From Aquibium microcysteis (GTDB lineage: Bacteria > Pseudomonadota > Alphaproteobacteria > Rhizobiales > Rhizobiaceae): a DNA stretch of 64,000 nucleotides. Location of the stretch: the NCBI RefSeq assembly GCF_014495845.1, contig NZ_CP061080.1, forward strand, positions 5,260,001-5,324,000, in the 5' to 3' direction. Below, piece after piece: positions 31,704 through 46,574 of the stretch (position 1 is its first letter; every line of letters begins with the position of its first letter). A program made the translations under genes and the position numbers. The notes under the pieces were generated by a model. It saw only the letters and a program-made list of their open reading frames with translations, ran no database searches and had not been told where the DNA came from.

Positions 31704-33104
31704 TCAGACGCGGCCCTGCCGCTTCTTCCGCCAGGGCGCGTTGGCTTCCCAGTCGCCAGCCATGATGCAGCCGTAGGGCAGCACCTCGTCGACGATCTCG
31801 GCGAGGCCGAAATCCTCGATCTGGCGGCGGACGGTGGATGCGCTCTTGTAGGCGCTCGGCAGTTCCGAGATGTCCGTGACACCCGAGAAGAACCGCGCGT
31901 CGATACCCTTCGTCTCCTCGGCGACGATGTCCTCGACGGGACGATCGCCCTTGAGCCGCTTGTGCTGAGTGCGTGAGAAGTTGCGCCCCGCGCCATGCGG
32001 CGAGAAGCCCAGCCCGTGAGCCGCGTTCCTGCCGCGCGCAATCAGCACCGGTTCCGCCATGTTGAGCGGAATCAGCGTCAGGTCGGTTGCGTCGTCCGCC
32101 CAGTCGTCGAAGGCGGGCGTCGCTCCCTTGCCGTGATAAAACAGACCGTCCGAGCGCCGGAAGACGAAGTTGTGCTCGTTCCAGAACCGGTCGCCCACCT
32201 TGGCGGAGAGGCGTTCCGCCGTGAGGTCGTGGATGAGTTCGTGGTTCGCCTTCGTCCAGGCGCGGATGGTCTGCAGCGCGTCCCAATAGTCGTCGCCTTC
32301 CCGCGTGTCGGCGGGGATCCAGGCGTTCTGGGGCAGCGTCGCCGGCGACAGCCGTTTGCGGAAACTCTCGGCGATCTTCATGCCGCGGGAATAGAGCCGG
32401 GCGCCCGGCGCGCGCGACCCGTGATGGGTCACGAGCGCCGTCTCGCCGGTCGATTTCAGCGTGCCGACGAAGGCGAAGTGGTTGCCGTCGCCCTGCGTGC
32501 CGAAGTGCTCGATCGCCGCGCTCATATTGTCGCGCAGACAGGGATTGGCGTCGATGCGCGCGGCGACTTCTGCCGGCGGGCGGATCTGTTGCCCGCGCGG
32601 GCGCCCGCCCGGTCCGAAATGCGTCACCGCATGGACCGCGTCGAGCAACGCGGCCGGCGATACGCCCGGGAAGGTCGAGATCGCCATCGAGCAGCAGATG
32701 TCGGCCGAATGCATGTCGGGATGGATCGCCTCGGAAACCACCACGCCGCCGACCGGGATCGTGCCAGACGGGCCCGCCGGGCACGCGTCGGGCATGATCG
32801 CGCCGGCGCGCACCACCGGCGTGCGCATCAGCATCCGCATCGAGTTGCTCACCGCTTCGACATTCGAGGCCTCGTGCTCGTTCTCCGCCTTGATGTTGAC
32901 GTGGAACGGAATCGTATCCTGCGCCAGCAGCGGCACCGCTGGCGGCGGCTCGAAAGCGCGCGCGGCCGCGACCGCGTCCGCATGCGACCCGCCGCGCGCG
33001 AGCACCGTGTTGCCGGCGGCGAGCGCGTCGCGAAACCACTTTCCCTGCGCCAGTCCGGCGTCGATGAGATCCTGTCCGCTCAGTACGTCGACCATGTCGT
33101 CCAT
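31704..33104 (-). CDS. rtcB: RNA-splicing ligase RtcB
   Basis: 466 residues, longer than the 408 of E. coli RtcB. Metal and guanylate site blocks are intact: HPDMHSADICCSMAIS (Asp, Cys), HFGTQGDGNHF (His), and THHGSRAPG; the guanylated His lies in SPHGAGR in the C-terminal third. It joins RNA 2',3'-cyclic phosphate or 3'-phosphate ends to 5'-OH ends using GTP and Mn2+. The start at 33104 follows the last tRNA-like RNA unit by 80 nt. Gene order rsr - RNA array - rtcB on one strand implies a shared RtcR-controlled transcript. No rtcA follows it. Confidence 0.93.
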   Translation of the reverse strand: MDDMVDVLSGQDLIDAGLAQGKWFRDALAAGNTVLARGGSHADAVAAARAFEPPPAVPLLAQDTIPFHVNIKAENEHEASNVEAVSNSMRMLMRTPVVRAGAIMPDACPAGPSGTIPVGGVVVSEAIHPDMHSADICCSMAISTFPGVSPAALLDAVHAVTHFGPGGRPRGQQIRPPAEVAARIDANPCLRDNMSAAIEHFGTQGDGNHFAFVGTLKSTGETALVTHHGSRAPGARLYSRGMKIAESFRKRLSPATLPQNAWIPADTREGDDYWDALQTIRAWTKANHELIHDLTAERLSAKVGDRFWNEHNFVFRRSDGLFYHGKGATPAFDDWADDATDLTLIPLNMAEPVLIARGRNAAHGLGFSPHGAGRNFSRTQHKRLKGDRPVEDIVAEETKGIDARFFSGVTDISELPSAYKSASTVRRQIEDFGLAEIVDEVLPYGCIMAGDWEANAPWRKKRQGRV

Positions 33105-33184
33105 CCCTATTCATCTCTTCGCGAACCCATTGGGGCTGCGTCTGCCAATTGTTCAGCCGGCTTGCGGCGCCGGGTTCGGCGGTC

Positions 33185-33279
33185 GGACGACAAGGGGCTG
33201 CAAGACCATCGACGAACCTTCCGGTCCATCGGGCGGATTCGAACCGCCAGTACCGATGTAGTCCTGCATTCATTCGTCC
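33185..33279 (-). ncRNA. Y RNA-like unit 6: T-arm/acceptor minihelix
   Basis: Shortest unit (95 nt), read on the minus strand. The outer helix pairs GGACGA (33279-33274) with TCGTCC (33190-33185) and holds the motif GACGAATG. The inner helix pairs TGCAGGAC (33268-33261) with GTCTTGCA (33206-33199). Inside is a T arm, GGCGG-TTCGAAT-CCGCC, then a 9-bp acceptor-like stem CGATGGACC / GGTTCGTCG closed by the GNRA loop GGAA. D arm and anticodon arm are absent. It therefore mimics only the top half of a tRNA. It lies directly before rtcB. Confidence 0.75.
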
Positions 33280-33288
33280 TTCCGGTCT

Positions 33289-33414
33289 GGCGACAAAACG
33301 CGCCAGGACGTTTCTGAGCTACTTCGCGTCCTTGCGGGTGCGAGGGGCGACTTGAACGCCCGACCTCCCGACATGTGCCGGGTGCTCTATCCTGTAGTCC
33401 CGACTGCATTCGCC
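33289..33414 (-). ncRNA. Y RNA-like unit 5: permuted tRNA mimic, broken in the D loop
   Basis: Outer helix GGCGA (33414-33410) / TCGCC (33293-33289), where both strands changed together relative to GACGA/TCGTC in units 1, 2 and 6. Inner helix GTCGGGAC (33404-33397) / GTCCTGGC (33309-33302). The body starts in the D loop (GGATAGAGCA), then an anticodon-like hairpin CCCGGC-ACAT-GTCGGG with only four loop bases, the variable AGGTC, and a T arm GGGCG-TTCAAGT-CGCCC. An acceptor stem capped by GCAA follows, then the 5' part AGTAGCTCAG. It cannot decode or be charged as a normal tRNA. Confidence 0.78.
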
Positions 33415-33416
33415 CT

Positions 33417-33556
33417 CGATGCTTGGCGGCAAGGGTTGGCAGGACAGCTTTGACTGCGCCACATCGCCTTGCGGCGATGGAGTGATTTGAACACCCGACC
33501 TCTCGCCTTGGGGCGAGCGCGCTACCTGTAGTCCTGCCCGCATTCGCCAGGCATCG
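33417..33556 (-). ncRNA. Y RNA-like unit 4: permuted tRNA mimic with GCAA-capped acceptor
   Basis: Outer helix CGATGCCTGGCG (33556-33545) / CGCCAAGCATCG (33428-33417) has one mismatch; inner helix GGCAGGAC (33538-33531) / GTCCTGCC (33445-33438) is perfect. The body reads from the D loop: GGTAGCGC, hairpin CTCGCC-CCAA-GGCGAG in place of the anticodon arm, AGGTC, T arm GGGTG-TTCAAAT-CACTC. Then comes a perfect 7-bp acceptor CATCGCC / GGCGATG joined by GCAA (33472-33469), and TGGCGCAGT. This is the clearest case of a tRNA whose two ends are fused and whose chain is reopened in the D loop. Confidence 0.82.
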
Positions 33557-33558
33557 AT

Positions 33559-33689
33559 GATCGCGGCGCCAGAAATGACGAAACCCCGGAAGCCCCGCTC
33601 GTGCCAGTGAGCGCCCGCAAGGGTGAGGAGTCGAACCCCACGGGTCATCCCTGTATTGTGCTGTAGTTCCGTCGGCATTCGCCGCGATC
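33559..33689 (-). ncRNA. Y RNA-like unit 3: partly degenerate tRNA mimic
   Basis: Outer helix GATCGCGGCG (33689-33680) / CGCCGCGATC (33568-33559), 10 perfect pairs; inner helix GACGGAAC (33673-33666) / GTTTCGTC (33584-33577). Inside are a T arm (TGGGG-TTCGACT-CCTCA), a short acceptor CCC-TTGC-GGG and a D arm GCTC-ACTGGCAC-GAGC. Anticodon-arm pairing is unclear; GGG-ATGA-CCC forms a small separate hairpin. The 3' flank differs from the TTG[TC]CG[TC]C of the other units, but the outer helix is the longest perfect one. Confidence 0.72.
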
Positions 33690-33699
33690 GTATTGGGGT

Positions 33700-33826
33700 G
33701 TGACGACAATTTCGTCGCGAAACGTTCTTCTGCTCTAACCGCTGAGCTACGGCCCCGATTGGCGGGACCGGCGGGACTTGAACCCGCGACACGAAGGTTG
33801 GATGTAGTTCCGCTGTCATTCGTCAC
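33700..33826 (-). ncRNA. Y RNA-like unit 2: permuted tRNA with encoded CCA
   Basis: Outer helix GTGACGA (33826-33820) / TCGTCAC (33706-33700); inner helix GCGGAAC (33813-33807) / GTTTCGC (33723-33717). The body begins in the anticodon arm, then variable GTGTC, T arm GCGGG-TTCAAGT-CCCGC, acceptor strand CGGTCCC, discriminator G and CCA (33762-33760). After ATC the 5' strand GGGGCCG starts and pairs fully with CGGTCCC (one G-U), followed by TAGCTCAGCGGTTAGAGCA. Anticodon stem GAAGA/CCTTC has four pairs. The acceptor end is open, so processing to 5' and 3'-CCA ends is possible. Confidence 0.8.
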
Positions 33827-33874
33827 GCTCTTCTCGCTACTCCTTCTTTCAGTCCTGTTGGCACCCGACGTCGT

Positions 33875-34022
33875 CATGACGACAAGGGTGATGAAACGTC
33901 GCCCGCCTTGCGGCGGACACCTGCTCTACCGCTGAGCTACGGGCCCGCAGTGGTGGACCCGGCGGGATTCGAACCCGCGACCTGGAGGGTGACAGCCTGT
34001 AGTTCCATCGGCATTCGTCATG
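33875..34022 (-). ncRNA. Y RNA-like unit 1: permuted tRNA with encoded CCA
   Basis: First unit after rsr. Outer helix CATGACGA (34022-34015) / TCGTCATG (33882-33875); inner helix GATGGAAC (34009-34002) / GTTTCATC (33897-33890). The 3' half comes first: AGGTC, T arm GCGGG-TTCGAAT-CCCGC, CGGGTCC, A, CCA (33953-33951). After CTGC the 5' half follows: GGGCCCG, which pairs fully with CGGGTCC, then TAGCTCAGCGGTAGAGCA. An extra GNRA hairpin CCGCC-GCAA-GGCGG (33916-33903) sits beyond the D arm. Anticodon-stem pairing is imperfect (GGTGT/TCACC). Standard tRNA finders would miss it because the halves are swapped. Confidence 0.8.
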
Positions 34023-34076
34023 CGCTTTCGGTGTGGCTCCCGGCGGGTGCACCGCCGGGAGCCGTCTTCAAAGCGC
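34022..34076 (-). other. Stable two-part hairpin at the rsr stop codon
   Basis: On the minus strand GGCTCCCGGCGG (34063-34052) pairs perfectly with CCGCCGGGAGCC (34046-34035) around a 5-nt loop. An outer 7-bp helix, GCGCTTT (34076-34070) / AAAGCGC (34028-34022), encloses it. The rsr stop lies in the outer left strand. There is no T-run, so it is more likely a processing or mRNA-stability element separating rsr mRNA from the RNA array than a full terminator. Confidence 0.6.
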
Positions 34077-35627
34077 TGTCGCATCGATGGCGCGGACCCA
34101 GTGATCCGGGTCGTTGCCGCTCGAAACGAAGCTTGCCACCACGTCGAACACACGGTCCGAGAAGCCGCCGACGTTCAGCACGTCGCCGTCGCCCTTCGCC
34201 TGCGTCGTCGCATGGGGCTGGATGTCGACGCAGACCAGCTTCGCCTTCGGGTTCAACGCCTTCAGCTTCCGCCACTCCTGCATCGTTCCGGTCCCCTGAT
34301 GCGGATGCGCCGTAGCGTCCAACCAGGACTGGTTGTCCGAAACGAACAGAACCAGGTCGACCTTTGCCCGCTCCTTCACCAGCCGCGCCAGCGGAGCCGA
34401 ACAGTTCGTTCCGCCGCCACCGATCGCGGCCAGCTTCGCCGCATTGGTCATCACCGTGTCGCGGGCGTTGAGGTGGACTTCCACCACGTCGTTCTCGAAC
34501 GGCAGGACCCGCGCCGTCGGGTTGCGCCGCAGAACCGACGCCGCCACGAGCGCAGCGACGTCGATACAGCGGACCGTCGACGTCGACCCCTTGCGGTGGC
34601 CGGTCACCGACGACCCCATCGACCCCGAAACGTCCGGGCAGACGACGACGTTTCTGCCGAAGGACGGCACGTTGGCGAGTGCCACCTCCATCGCATCCTG
34701 CAACGAGTCCCGGACCACCGGCGGCACGGCTGGATCGACGTTCATGTACGCCACCAACAGCTGGTAGGGGAAAACGCGCGAGCGCTTCACCTCGGCGGGG
34801 TCGGCCAGGCGACGGGCAAGCCGCTCGGCAAATCCCTCCACCTCGAACACGCCGTGGCGTGCGAAGGTGTTCAGGTTCTGCCGCAGCATCTGCCAGCCGG
34901 CCGTCTCGGCGATCTCTGCCCAATGCTCCTTCGTCAGGGGCAGTGCGGTGAGCATCTGGAACGGCACGTTCGGCACCGGCAGCGACGGGTCGCGCTTGAA
35001 CGCCTCGAACGCCGTAACCTGCACCGGCAGGGCGTTCACATCGTGCGGTTTGCCGAGCAGATAGCCGTAAAGCGCCTCACGCGACGCCGAGACCGGCTTC
35101 GGGTGAACCATCTTCACGACATCCGCCAGCGAGGGGTCGTTGCCGACCGCCGCCCGCATGAGTTCGACGTCCGAGGCCTTCTCCAGCCATCCGAGTACCA
35201 GCCGCTTGGGACGCGTCCCCAGCGACTTGCGCCCCGTGGCGCCCGACCGCATGACCTGCACGAAGGTGCGCAGCATCTTGCCGTTCTTCACGACCCGGCT
35301 GAACGCTCGCTCGAACTGGTCGCCCTGCATCTGCGAGAGGATCGCCAGCAGGAATGCCGGCATATCCTTCATGTAGCCCTGCTCGAAAGCATGCACGGCG
35401 GTCTTGGCCAGGAATTCCGGTTCGACCTGCCAGGCAAGCTTCAGCACCTCGTCGAGCTGCTCCCGCGCATCCGCGTAGAAGGTGGCGTTGAACGTTCCCG
35501 TCGCGGCCAGCTGCGCGAGAGCCTGATGCGGCGCCAGCCGGTAGGCCGGAGCGCCCTCGTGGTTCGTCGCGTCGGTACGCGGGAGCAGCTTTCCCCTGAT
35601 CGCCGCAAACACGGATTTGTTTGCCAT
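34068..35627 (-). CDS. rsr: Ro60/TROVE domain protein Rsr
   Basis: 519 residues from MANKSVFAAIRGKLLPRTDA, start 35627 with AAGGAAG upstream. Residues about 15-320 form the HEAT-like TROVE ring (VEPEFLAKTAVHAFEQGYMKD, GYLLGKPHDVNALP). The C-terminal part is a von Willebrand A domain with the MIDAS motif DVSGSMGSS near 332-340. Ro60 orthologues bind Y RNAs and misfolded RNA and, in bacteria, gate exonucleases such as PNPase. The RNA array directly downstream is its likely ligand. Probably transcribed from the sigma-54-like site at 35661-35676. Confidence 0.92.
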   Translation of the reverse strand: MANKSVFAAIRGKLLPRTDATNHEGAPAYRLAPHQALAQLAATGTFNATFYADAREQLDEVLKLAWQVEPEFLAKTAVHAFEQGYMKDMPAFLLAILSQMQGDQFERAFSRVVKNGKMLRTFVQVMRSGATGRKSLGTRPKRLVLGWLEKASDVELMRAAVGNDPSLADVVKMVHPKPVSASREALYGYLLGKPHDVNALPVQVTAFEAFKRDPSLPVPNVPFQMLTALPLTKEHWAEIAETAGWQMLRQNLNTFARHGVFEVEGFAERLARRLADPAEVKRSRVFPYQLLVAYMNVDPAVPPVVRDSLQDAMEVALANVPSFGRNVVVCPDVSGSMGSSVTGHRKGSTSTVRCIDVAALVAASVLRRNPTARVLPFENDVVEVHLNARDTVMTNAAKLAAIGGGGTNCSAPLARLVKERAKVDLVLFVSDNQSWLDATAHPHQGTGTMQEWRKLKALNPKAKLVCVDIQPHATTQAKGDGDVLNVGGFSDRVFDVVASFVSSGNDPDHWVRAIDATAL

Positions 35628-35660: not shown

Positions 35661-35676
35661 TTCAAGAGGCATGCCA
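35661..35676 (-). promoter_or_regulatory. Sigma-54-like -24/-12 promoter of rsr
   Basis: On the minus strand TGGCATG-CCTC-TTGAA matches the consensus TGGCACG-N4-TTGCA with GG and the -12 element correctly spaced; the -12 has GA instead of GC. It lies 34 nt before the chosen rsr start, leaving room for a short leader with the AAGGAAG site. The divergent neighbour encodes RtcR, an obligate sigma-54 activator, which makes the match meaningful. Confidence 0.6.
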
Positions 35677-35709: not shown

Positions 35710-35836
35710 CTTCCTTCAAGCCTCTGATATCATTGCATACAAATCTTCCGACCAACGATGTTGCGGGGAATGTTGACGTTGGGTGGAGACAGGTGAAATA
35801 ATCCCACGGTATAGATTCATATCGAATGAGATAAGA

Positions 35837-37450
35837 ATGAAGCGGTGTGTGGCCATCAGCATTCTCGGAACCACCCTGGATGTCGGAGGTCGCGACGATC
35901 GCTGGAAGCGCTGGCGTCCGACTGTCTCGCTTTGCCTGCAGCCGAACCTCTTCATCGACCGGCTCGAACTTATTCACGGAGCGGCCGCGACGGGACTGGC
36001 AAAGCAGATCATTCGCGACATCGAGGAGGTATCGCCAGGCACCGAGGTGCGTCAGAACGTCATGAACATGCGCGACCACTGGGATTTCAGTGAGGTCTAT
36101 ACCAGCCTGCGTGACTTCGCCCGGGCATATGAGTTCGACACGGAGCGCGAGGACTATCTCGTCAATATCACCACCGGCACGCATGTCGCTCAGATCTGCT
36201 GGTTCCTGCTGACCGAGGCCCGCTTCATTCCTGCCCGGCTGCTGCAGCTCTCGCCGCCGCCGCGGCGGAGATCGCCGGACGATCCGATCGACGTCACCGG
36301 CAGCCATTCCATTATCGATCTCGACCTGTCCCGATACGACGCCATCGCCACGCGCTTCGCCGCCGAGCGCGACGAGGCGACGTCGTTTCTGAAGTCCGGC
36401 ATCGAAACGAAGAACCCGGCTTTCAACCGGATGATCGATCAGATCGAGAAAGTTGCGATCCGCTCGCGCGCGCCCGTCCTGCTGACCGGGCCGACTGGCG
36501 CCGGCAAGTCGCAACTCGCCAGGCGCATCTACGAACTCAAGAAGGCGCAGCGCCAGATCTCCGGCGATTTCATCGAGGTGAACTGCGCGACGCTGCGCGG
36601 CGATCAGGCGATGTCGACCCTGTTCGGCCATGTGAAGGGGGCCTTCACCGGCGCGCAGTCCGAGCGCGCTGGCCTGATGAGGTCGGCCGACAAGGGCGTT
36701 TTGTTTCTTGACGAGATCGGCGAACTGGGACTGGACGAGCAGGCGATGTGTCTGCGTGCCATCGAGGAACGGCGATTCCTGCCGGTGGGCGCCGACCGCG
36801 ACACGACGTCGGACTTCCAGCTGCTGGCCGGCACGAATCGCGACCTCTCCGCCAGCGTCAGGGAAGGCCGGTTCCGCGAGGACCTGTTCGCCCGGCTGAA
36901 TCTCTGGACCTTCACCCTCCCGGCCCTGAGGGATCGGAAGGAGGACATCGAGCCGAACCTCGAATTCGAACTGCGCCGCTTCAGCGAGAAGGAGGGACGC
37001 AACGTCACGTTCAACAGGGAAGCGCGGGAGACCTACATCCGGTTCTCCATGGCACCGGAGGCAGCGTGGCGCGCCAATTTCCGTGACCTCTCGGCCTCCG
37101 TGACCCGAATGGCGACTCTGGCGCCGCAAGGCCGAATCAACGAGGAAACGGTCCGCGAGGAGATCGCGAGGTTGCGGCGGCTCTGGGCGGGCTCGCTTGC
37201 CGCCGACGAGCCGGAAGCCATGCTCGCCGGTCTCTTCGGCGCTGAAAGGCTGAAGGAGATCGATCCGTTCGACCGGGCACAACTCGCCACCGTCGTGGCG
37301 GTTTGCAGGCGATCCAACTCGCTCAGTTCGGCAGGGCGCGAGCTGTTTGCCGTATCCCGGCTTCAAAAATCCAGCAGCAACGATGCCGATCGACTGCGGA
37401 AGTACCTGGCCCGCTTCGATCTCTCCTTCGATAGCTTGGTCCGACCCTAG
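35837..37450 (+). CDS. rtcR: RtcR, CARF-AAA+ sigma-54-dependent activator
   Basis: 537 residues (E. coli RtcR 532) from the ATG at 35837 with GAGATAAG upstream. Residues 1-180 are the CARF-like sensor, with VNITTGTHVAQ near 109-119 as the likely ligand loop. The AAA+ domain has Walker A GPTGAGKS (218-225), the sigma-54 contact loop GAFTGA (268-273) and Walker B VLFLDE (288-293). A C-terminal helix-turn-helix is expected at about 470-535. RtcR in E. coli is switched on by RNA damage products, probably cyclic-phosphate-ended RNA or oligonucleotides. It should activate rsr, the RNA array and rtcB. Confidence 0.93.
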   Translation: MKRCVAISILGTTLDVGGRDDRWKRWRPTVSLCLQPNLFIDRLELIHGAAATGLAKQIIRDIEEVSPGTEVRQNVMNMRDHWDFSEVYTSLRDFARAYEFDTEREDYLVNITTGTHVAQICWFLLTEARFIPARLLQLSPPPRRRSPDDPIDVTGSHSIIDLDLSRYDAIATRFAAERDEATSFLKSGIETKNPAFNRMIDQIEKVAIRSRAPVLLTGPTGAGKSQLARRIYELKKAQRQISGDFIEVNCATLRGDQAMSTLFGHVKGAFTGAQSERAGLMRSADKGVLFLDEIGELGLDEQAMCLRAIEERRFLPVGADRDTTSDFQLLAGTNRDLSASVREGRFREDLFARLNLWTFTLPALRDRKEDIEPNLEFELRRFSEKEGRNVTFNREARETYIRFSMAPEAAWRANFRDLSASVTRMATLAPQGRINEETVREEIARLRRLWAGSLAADEPEAMLAGLFGAERLKEIDPFDRAQLATVVAVCRRSNSLSSAGRELFAVSRLQKSSSNDADRLRKYLARFDLSFDSLVRP

Positions 37451-44861: not shown

Positions 44862-46574
44862 TTAGAACAGGAAATACCGCTGCGCCATCGGCAGCACGGT
44901 TGCCGGCGGGCAGGTCAGCAGTTCGCCGTCGGCGCGCACCTCGTAGGTTTCCGAATCCACTTCGATGTGCGGCATGGCGTCGTTGAGGATCATCGAGCGC
45001 TTGCCGATGCCGCCGCGGGTGTTTTCGACCGCGACCATGGCCTTGTCGACGCCGAGCCGCTGCTTCAGACCGGCGTCGAGCGCGGCCTTCGAGACGAAGG
45101 TGACGGAGGAGTTGGTGATCGCCTTGCCGAAGGCGCCGAACATCGGCCGCATGTGGACGGGCTGCGGGGTGGGGATCGAGGCGTTGGGGTCGCCCATGGG
45201 GGCAGCCGCGATCGACCCGCCGATCAGCACCATGTCGGGCTTCACGCCGAAGAAGGCCGGGTTCCAGATGACGATGTCGGCACGCTTGCCGACCTCGAGG
45301 GAGCCGATCTCCTTGGACAGGCCGTGCGCGATGGCCGGATTGATCGTATACTTGGCAATGTAGCGGCGGGCGCGGAGATTGTCGTTTTCTCCGGTCTCCT
45401 CCTTCAGCCGCCCGCGCTGGCGCTTCATCTTGTCGGCGGTCTGCCATGTGCGGATGATCACCTCGCCGATGCGGCCCATGGCCTGGCTGTCCGACGAGAT
45501 GATGGAGAAGGCGCCCATGTCGTGCAGGATGTCTTCCGCTGCGATCGTCTCCTTGCGGATGCGGCTTTCGGCGAAGGCGATGTCCTCGGGGATCGACGGC
45601 GACAGGTGGTGGCAGACCATCAGCATGTCGAGATGCTCGGCGATGGTGTTGACCGTGTAGGGCCGCGTCGGATTGGTCGAGGACGGAATGACGTTGGGCA
45701 GCCCGCAGACCTTGATGATGTCGGGCGCGTGGCCGCCGCCGGCACCTTCGGTGTGGAAGGCGTGGATGGTGCGGCCCTTGATGGCGGCCACCGTATTCTC
45801 CACGAAGCCGCTTTCGTTCAGCGTGTCGGTGTGGATCATGACCTGCACGTCGTAGGCGTCGGCCACCGACAGGCAGCAGTCGATGGCGGCCGGCGTCGTG
45901 CCCCAGTCTTCGTGCAGCTTCAGGGCGCAGGCGCCGCCGAGCACCATCTCCTCCAGCGCCGCAGGCAGGGAGGCATTGCCCTTGGCCGACAGACCGATGT
46001 TCATCGGGAAGGCGTCGAAGGACTGGATCATGCGGCCGATGTGCCAGGGGCCGGGCGTGCAGGTGGTGGCGAGCGTGCCATGGGCCGGGCCGGTGCCGCC
46101 GCCGAGCATGGTGGTCAGTCCCGCCATCAGCGCCTCCTCGATCTGCTGCGGGCAGATGAAGTGGATGTGCGCGTCGAAGCCGCCGGCCGTGACGATCTTG
46201 CCCTCGCCGGCAATGGCCTCCGTGCCCGGACCGACGATGATGCTGACGCCCGGCTGGGTGTCGGGGTTGCCGGCCTTGCCGATGGCGTGGATGCGGCCGT
46301 CGCGCAGGCCGATGTCGGCCTTGTAGATCCCGGTGTGGTCGAAGATCAGCGCGTTGGTGATGACGGTGTCGACGGCGCCCGCCGCGCGCGTCACCTGGCT
46401 CTGGCCCATCCCGTCGCGGATCACCTTGCCGCCGCCGAACTTCACCTCCTCGCCGTAGACGGTCAGATCCTTCTCGACTTCGATGAACAGTTCGGTGTCG
46501 GCCAGCCGCACCCTGTCGCCCGTGGTGGGGCCGAACATCTGGGCATAGGCGGAACGGATGATGCGTGCGGGCAT
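44862..46574 (-). CDS. ureC: Urease subunit alpha
   Basis: 570 residues. The nickel-bridging carbamylated Lys is in [12 protein letters not shown]; nickel His residues are in [24 protein letters not shown] and [16 protein letters not shown]. The mobile flap has MVCHHLSP with the catalytic His, and SSDSQAMGR gives the Asp ligand. It hydrolyses urea to ammonia and carbamate. It is separated from ureB by two plus-strand genes, so it needs its own promoter in 46575-46726. Confidence 0.97.

What the first reader, a model, noticed from the sequence alone, without database searches (positions are those of the whole stretch)
33185..34022. Six tandem Y RNA-like units, each a permuted tRNA mimic, between rsr and rtcB
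The stretch between the Ro60 gene and the RNA ligase is not empty. On the minus strand six units follow head to tail with 2-48 nt spacers. Each has the motif G[AG]CGAATG at its 5' side, mostly TTG[TC]CG[TC]C at its 3' side, and inside them a T arm and 3' acceptor strand that come before the matching 5' acceptor strand. Rsr-YrlA-Rtc operons are known from Salmonella, and bacterial Y RNAs are known tRNA mimics; the 5' motif resembles the Ro60-binding helix reported for them (from memory). A six-member array with such varied modules is, as far as I know, undescribed.
Basis: partly seen in the sequence, partly recalled or inferred. Interest (0 to 1): 0.95.

Follow-up and report, generated by a model that had tools for sequence, protein, structure and literature searches.

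The report
Tandem Y RNAs mimicking rearranged tRNAs
Between the genes for a Ro60-like RNA-binding protein and an RNA-repair ligase, this bacterium carries six different predicted small-RNA genes in a row whose heads read as whole or partial tRNAs with their pieces in a new order; two are predicted to be near-complete tRNA folds opened in the D loop and lacking a normal anticodon loop, and the set would likely be made when tRNAs are damaged.

Summary
All six units lie on the minus strand between rsr and rtcB, share a Y RNA basal stem, and are the six best hits in the window of a covariance model built without window sequence. They are YrlA-like bacterial Y RNAs, but not of one kind. Y1 and Y2 have the library layout (T arm, acceptor, D arm; opened at the anticodon). 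Y3 and Y6 are reduced. Y4 and Y5 are predicted tRNAs opened inside the D loop: the two ends of the head form the D stem, and the anticodon arm is kept but capped by a short loop. This D-loop-split class recurs: 77 units in 54 of 80 related loci plus the window; RNAalifold returns the same fold for 48 units outside the model's seed; a class II, tRNA-Leu-like form occurs in 13 loci. In 297 genomes of the order it occurs in 13, all among the 27 with Rsr. Arrays of 2-7 units are the rule in the loci sampled (72 of 80), so six is not special; the second layout is. A conserved sigma-54 site and divergent rtcR suggest induction by tRNA damage. Expression, Rsr binding and function are untested, and the main YrlA survey papers could not be read.

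The parts
35837..37450 (+). rtcR, sigma-54 activator with RtcR domain; the open frame begins at 35783, many relatives align from about codon 19
   Evidence: Pfam RtcR 5e-78, Sigma54_activat 2.9e-50; alignment starts in relatives
35661..35676 (-). predicted sigma-54 promoter TGGCATGCCTCTTGAA in front of rsr
   Evidence: 9 of 11 consensus positions; 71 of 76 regions (window included) have 9 or more against 3.5% of shuffles; sigma-54 gene present
34068..35627 (-). rsr (Ro60 orthologue); the open frame extends to 35672, the consensus of relatives begins at MANKSV (codon 16)
   Evidence: Pfam vWA_Ro60 3e-21, TROVE 2.4e-7; alignment A1
34035..34063 (-). GC-rich hairpin between rsr stop and Y1, no T run
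   Evidence: read; similar hairpin in L007 and L008
33877..34020 (-). Y1: anticodon-split (library YrlA layout) head, ACCA between the acceptor strands, extra hairpin after the D arm
33701..33825 (-). Y2: anticodon-split head, best Rfam YrlA match (64.8 bits)
33564..33684 (-). Y3: T arm, rudimentary acceptor, D-arm-like CGCTCACTGGCACGAGCG, near-invariant in relatives
   Evidence: 43 such units, window included, in 41 loci plus the window; alignment A6 and fold of 27 of them
33424..33549 (-). Y4: D-loop-split, near-complete four-arm tRNA mimic, 4-nt cap in place of the anticodon loop
   Evidence: R2 109.5 bits
33519..33522 (-). Y4 D stem, 3' strand (GCGC), near the 5' end of the head; pairs with 33456-33459
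33456..33459 (-). Y4 D stem, 5' strand (GCGC), near the 3' end of the head
33288..33415 (-). Y5: D-loop-split, near-complete tRNA mimic with a 2x2 internal loop in the acceptor
   Evidence: R2 104.5 bits
33384..33387 (-). Y5 D stem, 3' strand (GAGC); pairs with 33316-33319
33316..33319 (-). Y5 D stem, 5' strand (GCTC)
33185..33279 (-). Y6: T arm plus long closed acceptor, no D arm as I read it (the script gave it a weak D hairpin that lies in the upper stem)
33125..33184 (-). probable decayed remnant of a seventh, tRNA-Leu-type unit (alignment continues weakly to 33087, into rtcB); no covariance model hits it
   Evidence: local alignment to L008 unit 7, score 70 against a maximum of 50 in 300 shuffles; absent
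31704..33104 (-). rtcB, RNA ligase
   Evidence: Pfam RtcB 8.7e-34

Best explanation
The stretch is a tandem set of six YrlA-like Y RNA sequences, predicted to be transcribed with rsr and rtcB from one RtcR/sigma-54 promoter, each predicted to bind Rsr by its shared basal stem and to hold out a different tRNA-shaped head that would likely dock tRNA-acting proteins onto Rsr when tRNAs are cut. Shown by sequence comparison: the shared stem, the six units, the gene order, the conserved sigma-54 site, and two head layouts, the second supported by covariation. In one layout (Y1, Y2) the tRNA is opened at the anticodon; in the other (Y4, Y5) it is opened in the D loop between the bases equivalent to 16 and 18, keeps acceptor, D, anticodon and T arms and the usual tertiary-contact bases, and has a short cap where the anticodon loop would be. 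Inferred: cleaved tRNA ends activate RtcR; the transcript is cut into single Y RNAs; Rsr carries them; the heads bind PNPase, RtcB or tRNA-modifying enzymes as a tRNA would, but cannot decode and offer no normal anticodon loop to cut, so the Rsr particle is tethered to tRNA decay or repair.
For: Identity. Context: (Rsr, RtcB, RtcR); all 51 loci with close RtcB also have rtcR and two or more units. Promoter: 71 of 76 regions; no terminator-like site between rsr and rtcB by a simple pattern scan; sigma-54 gene present. D-loop-split class: RNAalifold gives the same fold on 29 seed rows and on 48 non-seed rows (188 of 192 D-stem cells paired, with G-C, A-U and C-G types); the named structure on A2 pairs 94.5% of cells against 79.8% in shuffles, with 22 of 36 pairs changed on both sides. 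Bases that I place at U8, A14, R15, A21, Y48, T54, T55, C56, R57 and A58 are kept in 27-29 of 29 and 44-48 of 48 rows. The cap is 3-5 nt in 61 of 77 units and 7 nt in 3. Linkage: 13 of 13 genomes with a D-loop-split unit have Rsr, 125-678 nt upstream on the same strand; none of the 270 genomes without Rsr has one, p = 1.2e-15. Tether role of bacterial Y RNA between Rsr and PNPase, and TruB/DusA acting on YrlA: PMC8394870 and PMC4726728, passages. RtcR binding 5' tRNA fragments with cyclic phosphate: PMC7790460, passages.
Against: No transcript, binding or activity data. Y3 folds no better than shuffles and Y5 only weakly. Most D-loop-split heads do not match one isoacceptor, which speaks against heads made for one tRNA each. 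The genome has no RtcA, which is important for induction in Salmonella, so induction may differ. YrlA fragments were not seen in Salmonella when tRNAs are cut, which fits a decoy role as well as a tether role. The 77 units were picked by score with a model that contains the D stem, and 20 of its 29 seed rows were first found by a script that looked for that pairing. The locus is patchy: none of four same-genus genomes has Rsr.
Confidence: 0.55

Rival explanations
1. Decoys: the heads work chiefly as uncuttable tRNA look-alikes that soak up anticodon nucleases or other tRNA-attacking enzymes after damage; Rsr binding only stabilises them.
For: Anticodon loop replaced by a short cap in most D-loop-split units (61 of 77 with 3-5 nt); operon wired to tRNA cleavage in Salmonella; a competitive-inhibitor role for YrlA was proposed by Hughes et al. 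(PMC7790460, passages).
Against: The anticodon-split Y1/Y2 lack a normal anticodon arm, so an anticodon nuclease has little to hold; the Rsr stem is kept in all six; only a minority of heads resemble one tRNA species.
Confidence: 0.25
2. Copying by-product: one Y RNA matters and the rest are tandem duplicates drifting without a role of their own.
For: Unit number varies from 0 to 7 between loci; L007 has no GCGC-type (Y4-like) unit and has other units; a seventh unit seems to have decayed in the window.
Against: Compensatory changes keep the helices of the D-loop-split class and the Y3 type is near-invariant in part of its sequence, both signs of selection.
Confidence: 0.12
3. Cis element: the hairpins act inside the rsr-rtcB mRNA as spacers, stabilisers or a translation brake on rtcB and never work as free RNAs.
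For: They fill nearly the whole gap and run almost into rtcB.
Against: Conserved tRNA tertiary bases and D/T arms are not needed for a spacer; Y RNAs of Salmonella and D. radiodurans work bound to Rsr.
Confidence: 0.06
4. Permuted tRNA genes: Y4/Y5 are precursors that RtcB joins at the D loop to make real tRNAs, as in algae.
For: A D-loop junction (position 20/21) is one of the four known types of permuted tRNA genes (PMC3978253, passages), and an RNA ligase gene is adjacent.
Against: A 7-nt anticodon loop in only 3 of 77 units; acceptor strands mostly closed by 3-5 nt (52 of 77) with CCA in the loop in 6 of 77; ARAGORN reports no tRNA there; the shared Rsr stem.
Confidence: 0.02

Closest known systems
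YrlA, bacterial Y RNA (Rfam RF02553; Salmonella YrlA structure 6CU1)
   Same: Basal stem and GGA(A)CUAC motif, rsr neighbourhood, closed acceptor, T and D arms in Y1/Y2; circularly permuted against tRNA (PMC11472068, passages).
   Different: Y4/Y5: D stem formed by the two ends of the head (opened in the D loop), anticodon arm kept and capped; a class II form with long variable arm in relatives; none of the six reaches the gathering score. In 10 relatives six units pass it, all anticodon-split; none of the 18 D-loop-split units of those 10 loci does.
Salmonella rsr-yrlBA-rtcBA operon
   Same: Divergent rtcR, sigma-54 promoter, rsr, Y RNAs, rtcB in one order (PMC9879122, passages).
   Different: Six Y RNAs instead of two; no rtcA found in this genome.
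Circularly permuted tRNA genes of algae and archaea (type I, D-loop junction)
   Same: 3' half before 5' half, junction in the D loop (PMC3978253, passages).
   Different: No normal anticodon loop in most units, no maturation into tRNA expected, attached to an Rsr-type stem.
Permuted (two-piece) tmRNA of alphaproteobacteria (taxon recalled)
   Same: T arm and 3' acceptor strand before the 5' acceptor strand.
   Different: RF04321 scores 30.2 bits against a cut-off of 47 on Y1 and 16.6 on Y2; the units carry Y RNA stems.

Membership tests
YrlA / bacterial Y RNA | Score over the Rfam gathering cut-off (69 bits) | tested here: not met
   0 of 6 units; best 64.8. In 10 relatives 6 units pass, all anticodon-split
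YrlA / bacterial Y RNA | Basal stem with GNCGAAUG / UYGUCGYC and the GGA(A)CUAC core | tested here: met
   5' motif and core in 6 of 6, 3' motif in 5 of 6
YrlA / bacterial Y RNA | Encoded next to rsr | tested here: met
   Directly downstream of rsr
YrlA / bacterial Y RNA | Head order T arm - acceptor - local D hairpin (opened at the anticodon) | tested here: inconclusive
   Met by Y1 and Y2; Y3 with a rudimentary acceptor; not met by Y4, Y5 (D stem split) and Y6 (no D arm)
YrlA / bacterial Y RNA | Bound by Rsr; expressed as free RNA; modified like tRNA | not testable with these tools
   needs RNA and protein experiments
RtcR-controlled RNA repair operon | Divergent rtcR and sigma-54 promoter before the operon | tested here: met
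   (promoter by consensus and conservation only)
RtcR-controlled RNA repair operon | rtcA present | tested here: not met
   PF01137: 0 matches in the whole genome; E. coli control positive
Permuted tRNA gene | Standard 7-nt anticodon loop and a 3' CCA route to a mature tRNA | tested here: not met
   7-nt loop in 3 of 77 D-loop-split units, neither of them Y4 or Y5; CCA in the acceptor loop in 6 of 77; no ARAGORN hit in the array
Permuted tmRNA | RF04321 or RF00023 over the cut-off | tested here: not met
   30.2 bits each against 47

The most novel reading that the evidence does not exclude
A second architecture of bacterial Y RNA exists: near-complete tRNAs, class I and class II, opened inside the D loop, stripped of the anticodon loop and mounted on a Ro60-binding stem. 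Arrays of them are a repertoire of tRNA-shaped adaptors that the Ro60-RtcB repair operon deploys when tRNAs are cut.
Probability: 0.5. Interest if true: 0.85.

Novelty: new variant of a known kind. Interest (0 to 1): 0.72.

Why it matters
[quoted passage not shown] A natural series that keeps one Rsr-type stem and swaps heads - opened at two different points, with or without D arm, anticodon arm or variable arm - is a ready-made set for finding which tRNA feature matters and which protein reads it. If the D-loop-split class is real as RNA, evolution has built the same trick (a tRNA shape carried on a Ro60 stem) by two different rearrangements, which argues that the tRNA shape itself is the working part.

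Tried and rejected
Heads as copies of particular host tRNAs: D-loop-split heads put back in tRNA order and scored against 41 distinct tRNAs of this genome gave no consistent best match. Exceptions: the D stem GCGC/GCGC of Y4 occurs only in the three tRNA-Pro among those 41 (Met tRNAs were merged under one name), and the class II units carry tRNA-Leu marks.

Phage origin: 42 Rsr-bearing viral contigs gave 21 R1 hits of at most 50.1 bits; none of the 42 has one at 75 or more.

Permuted tmRNA or tRNA gene: rejected, see the membership test. R1 scores under about 60 bits are not specific in whole genomes: 22 of 190 genomes of the class match at E <= 1e-5, 18 of them at no more than 42 bits, and only 2 at 75 bits or more.

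Structure script: it failed to parse a T arm with acceptor in 93 of 321 units, so its class counts are lower bounds. Window Y5 was among the failures and was added to A2 by eye, as were L008_5, L015_4, L015_6, L046_2, L055_1, L058_1 and L063_4; L049_6, which the script had put in its T-plus-acceptor group, was added too. Eight of the 49 units that the script listed as D-loop-split were set aside as mis-parsed or odd; three of those stretches hold units that the model or I later took up (L016, L062, L079). Other units of that list were simply not used in A2. The 13 rows of A5 were chosen by eye for their tRNA-Leu-type D arms. Motif counts per locus are approximate: some starts are missed, and one is false (the third in L021 lies inside its second unit).

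Promoter scan used a pattern one base short and ended in an error; discarded, replaced.

Literature: eight searches (for example 'permuted tRNA' with 'Y RNA': 0 papers) showed no description of D-loop-split Y RNAs in the listings or in the passages that I read; but Chen 2014 (RNA), Wang 2018, Sim and Wolin 2018, Sim 2020, Burroughs and Aravind 2016, Chen 2013 and Wolin 2013 are not held, so 'not in print' is not established.

Full report
What is there. The window is G000:C1:5260001-5324000 of a 6.1-Mb genome held as one contig. On the minus strand follow rsr (vWA_Ro60 3e-21, TROVE 2.4e-7), six units, and rtcB (8.7e-34); rtcR is divergent on the plus strand (RtcR 5e-78). Each unit starts with G[AG]CGAATG and has GGA(A)CTACA 13-14 nt further on; five of six end with TTG[TC]CG[TC]C. 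Rfam YrlA aligns end to end to all six, at 17.4 to 64.8 bits, none over the cut-off of 69; for Y5 and Y3 the E-values (0.3, 1.5) are not significant alone. The locus is patchy: of 21 relatives searched only the window's own genome has a strong Rsr match, and none of four same-genus genomes (one of them 69% complete) has any.

Relatives. A strict motif finds 321 units in window plus loci: per locus 0 in 3, 1 in 5, 2 in 6, 3 in 19, 4 in 15, 5 in 17, 6 in 9, 7 in 6 of 80. These counts are approximate. All 51 loci with RtcB over 60% identity to the window's have at least two units and rtcR. So the array is the normal state in this sample; 15 of 80 loci, and the window, have six or more.

Two layouts. 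Canonical YrlA, as drawn by Rfam, reads T arm, acceptor, D arm: a tRNA opened where the anticodon arm would be. Y1 and Y2 fit. In Y4 and Y5 the minimum-energy fold instead pairs the last part of the head with its first part. Read in tRNA order (numbering recalled) this is U8-A9, D stem, A14-G15-N16, then the break, then G18-G19-N-A21, D stem, base 26, anticodon stem, a short cap, AGGUC variable loop, T arm, 3' acceptor strand, and a short loop that joins back to the 5' acceptor strand: a tRNA opened in the D loop. Y6 keeps only T arm and acceptor; Y3 a T arm, a rudimentary acceptor and a near-invariant D-arm-like hairpin.

Support for the D-loop-split fold. Twenty-nine units of this kind were aligned by MAFFT (A2). 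The named structure pairs 94.5% of 1037 cells (79.8% in shuffles, 0 of 500 as high), has changes on both sides in 22 of 36 pairs, and falls to 36-58% when slid by 1-3 columns. RNAalifold, given the alignment alone, returns the same six helices. A model from A2 (R1) searched over window and 80 loci gives 371 hits at E <= 0.01; in two batches that list every row, 204 and 171, all but two (23.8 and 22.7 bits) lie on the rsr strand. Scores are bimodal: 77 hits at 75.6-130.2 bits in 54 of 80 loci and the window, then one shortened unit at 69.3 and the rest at 60.3 or less. Of the 77, 48 were not in the seed; aligned by MAFFT alone (A4) RNAalifold again returns basal stem, upper stem, D stem, anticodon stem, T stem and acceptor, with 31 of 34 pairs showing a kept double change and 188 of 192 D-stem cells paired. 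A second model from A4 with that computed structure (R2), holding no window row, scores Y4 at 109.5 and Y5 at 104.5 and the other four units at 29.8-50.0 bits; the next hit is the window's tRNA-Ala at 20.3. Limits: the 48 were chosen with a model that contains the D stem, and 20 of the 29 seed rows came from a script that looked for it; E-values from these models are rough.

tRNA-likeness. At the columns that I place at U8, A14, R15, A21, Y48, T54, T55, C56, R57, A58 the tRNA base is kept in 27-29 of 29 (A2) and 44-48 of 48 (A4); a GG before A21 in 29 of 29 and 47 of 48. By a simple inward-pairing script the anticodon arm is capped by 4 nt in 50 of 77, 3-5 nt in 61 of 77, 7 nt in 3 of 77; in 9 of 77 the script stopped early and left 10 nt or more. 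Acceptor strands are joined by 3-5 nt in 52 of 77 and the loop holds CCA in 6 of 77, against 57 of 102 well-parsed anticodon-split units with CCA at that place; 12 of the 77 show 3 acceptor pairs or fewer by that script.

Class II form. Thirteen of the 80 loci hold a further unit, chosen by eye, whose head has tRNA-Leu marks: GTGGCGGAA in 13 of 13, GGTAGACGC in 9 of 13, the variable arm GTGCCGAAAGGCGTG exactly in 8 of 13; host tRNA-Leu(cag) has GTGCCGCAAGGCGTG. RNAalifold returns D stem, anticodon stem, variable arm, T stem and acceptor for them. The window keeps what looks like a decayed 5' part of such a unit at 33125-33184. The other heads do not follow single isoacceptors.

Rfam coverage. 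In 10 of the loci, six units pass the YrlA cut-off; all six are anticodon-split by my script and score 36.2-56.9 bits with R1. None of the 18 D-loop-split units of those loci passes.

Linkage. Among 297 genomes of the order, 13 have an R1 hit at E <= 1e-12 (all at least 77 bits); in the same draw (297 genomes, same handles where shown) 27 have Rsr at E <= 1e-40. All 13 are among the 27, p = 1.2e-15, and each unit lies 125-678 nt downstream of the Rsr match on its strand. The other 14 Rsr genomes have no such hit. In 190 genomes of the class 2 have a hit at 75 bits or more. Hits over 75 bits also occur in contigs titled Pedosphaera, Verrucomicrobia and Bacteroidota (L074, L079, L076); these are MAGs, so the labels are soft. 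Among 42 viral Rsr contigs none reaches 75 bits.

Regulation. A sigma-54 site (TGGCAC-N6-TG in most) precedes rsr: 71 of 76 regions have 9 or more of 11 consensus positions, against 3.5% of shuffles; L026, L027, L046, L076 and L082 fall short in the stretch searched. The window site is 35676-35661; sigma-54 is encoded. No terminator-like site was found between rsr and rtcB by a simple pattern scan. RtcA was not found in the genome.

Mechanism. [quoted passage not shown] bacterial Y RNA tethers Rsr to PNPase, and DusA and TruB modify the YrlA head (PMC8394870 and PMC4726728, passages). Inference: the array is an inducible repertoire of tRNA-shaped heads on one Rsr-type stem. I commit to the tether reading, with the decoy reading as main rival; the computed data do not separate them. 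The identity of the six units I hold at about 0.95, the D-loop-split fold at about 0.9, the tether function at about 0.35; the stated 0.55 is for the whole statement.

Novelty. Multi-Y-RNA operons are known, so the array alone is a larger case. The D-loop-split layout is not in the Rfam YrlA model and did not turn up in eight searches, but the papers most likely to show it could not be read.

Noticed in passing
whole genome G000: No RtcA (PF01137, 0 matches) although RtcR, RtcB and sigma-54 are present; how RtcR is switched on without the cyclase is open.
   Followed up: partly
window 33125-33184 (-): Apparent decayed remnant of a seventh, tRNA-Leu-type Y RNA; L008:8476-8599 holds a fuller copy.
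   Followed up: partly
window 34035-34063 (-): Strong hairpin without T run between rsr and Y1, also in L007 and L008; possibly a processing or stabilising element.
   Followed up: no
L028:8486-8575, L031:7328-7417, L007:8395-8490 and others: A further unit type without T arm (for example GGGGCCGCATCGCGCC...GGAATGCGTGCGGTG) with the same Rsr-type stem, not in the window.
   Followed up: no
L042:7709-7814, L044:7630-7733, L046:8108-8208, L067:8427-8533: Another head type sharing a CGTTATC(C/G)GGAGC motif, with no tRNA-like arms that I could see.
   Followed up: no
window 33564-33684 (-) and 42 further units in 41 loci: Y3 type: CGCTC(A/T)CTGGCACGAGCG almost invariant, more conserved than a helix needs; perhaps a protein site.
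   Followed up: partly
window 46135-46420 (+): Rfam 5_ureB_sRNA match at 115 bits (cut-off 40); the family is known to me (recalled) from Helicobacter, so it may reflect a coding-sequence match.
   Followed up: no
genomes of the class without a D-loop-split unit (e.g. G105, G122): Background R1 hits of 34-42 bits that may be permuted tmRNA genes.
   Followed up: no
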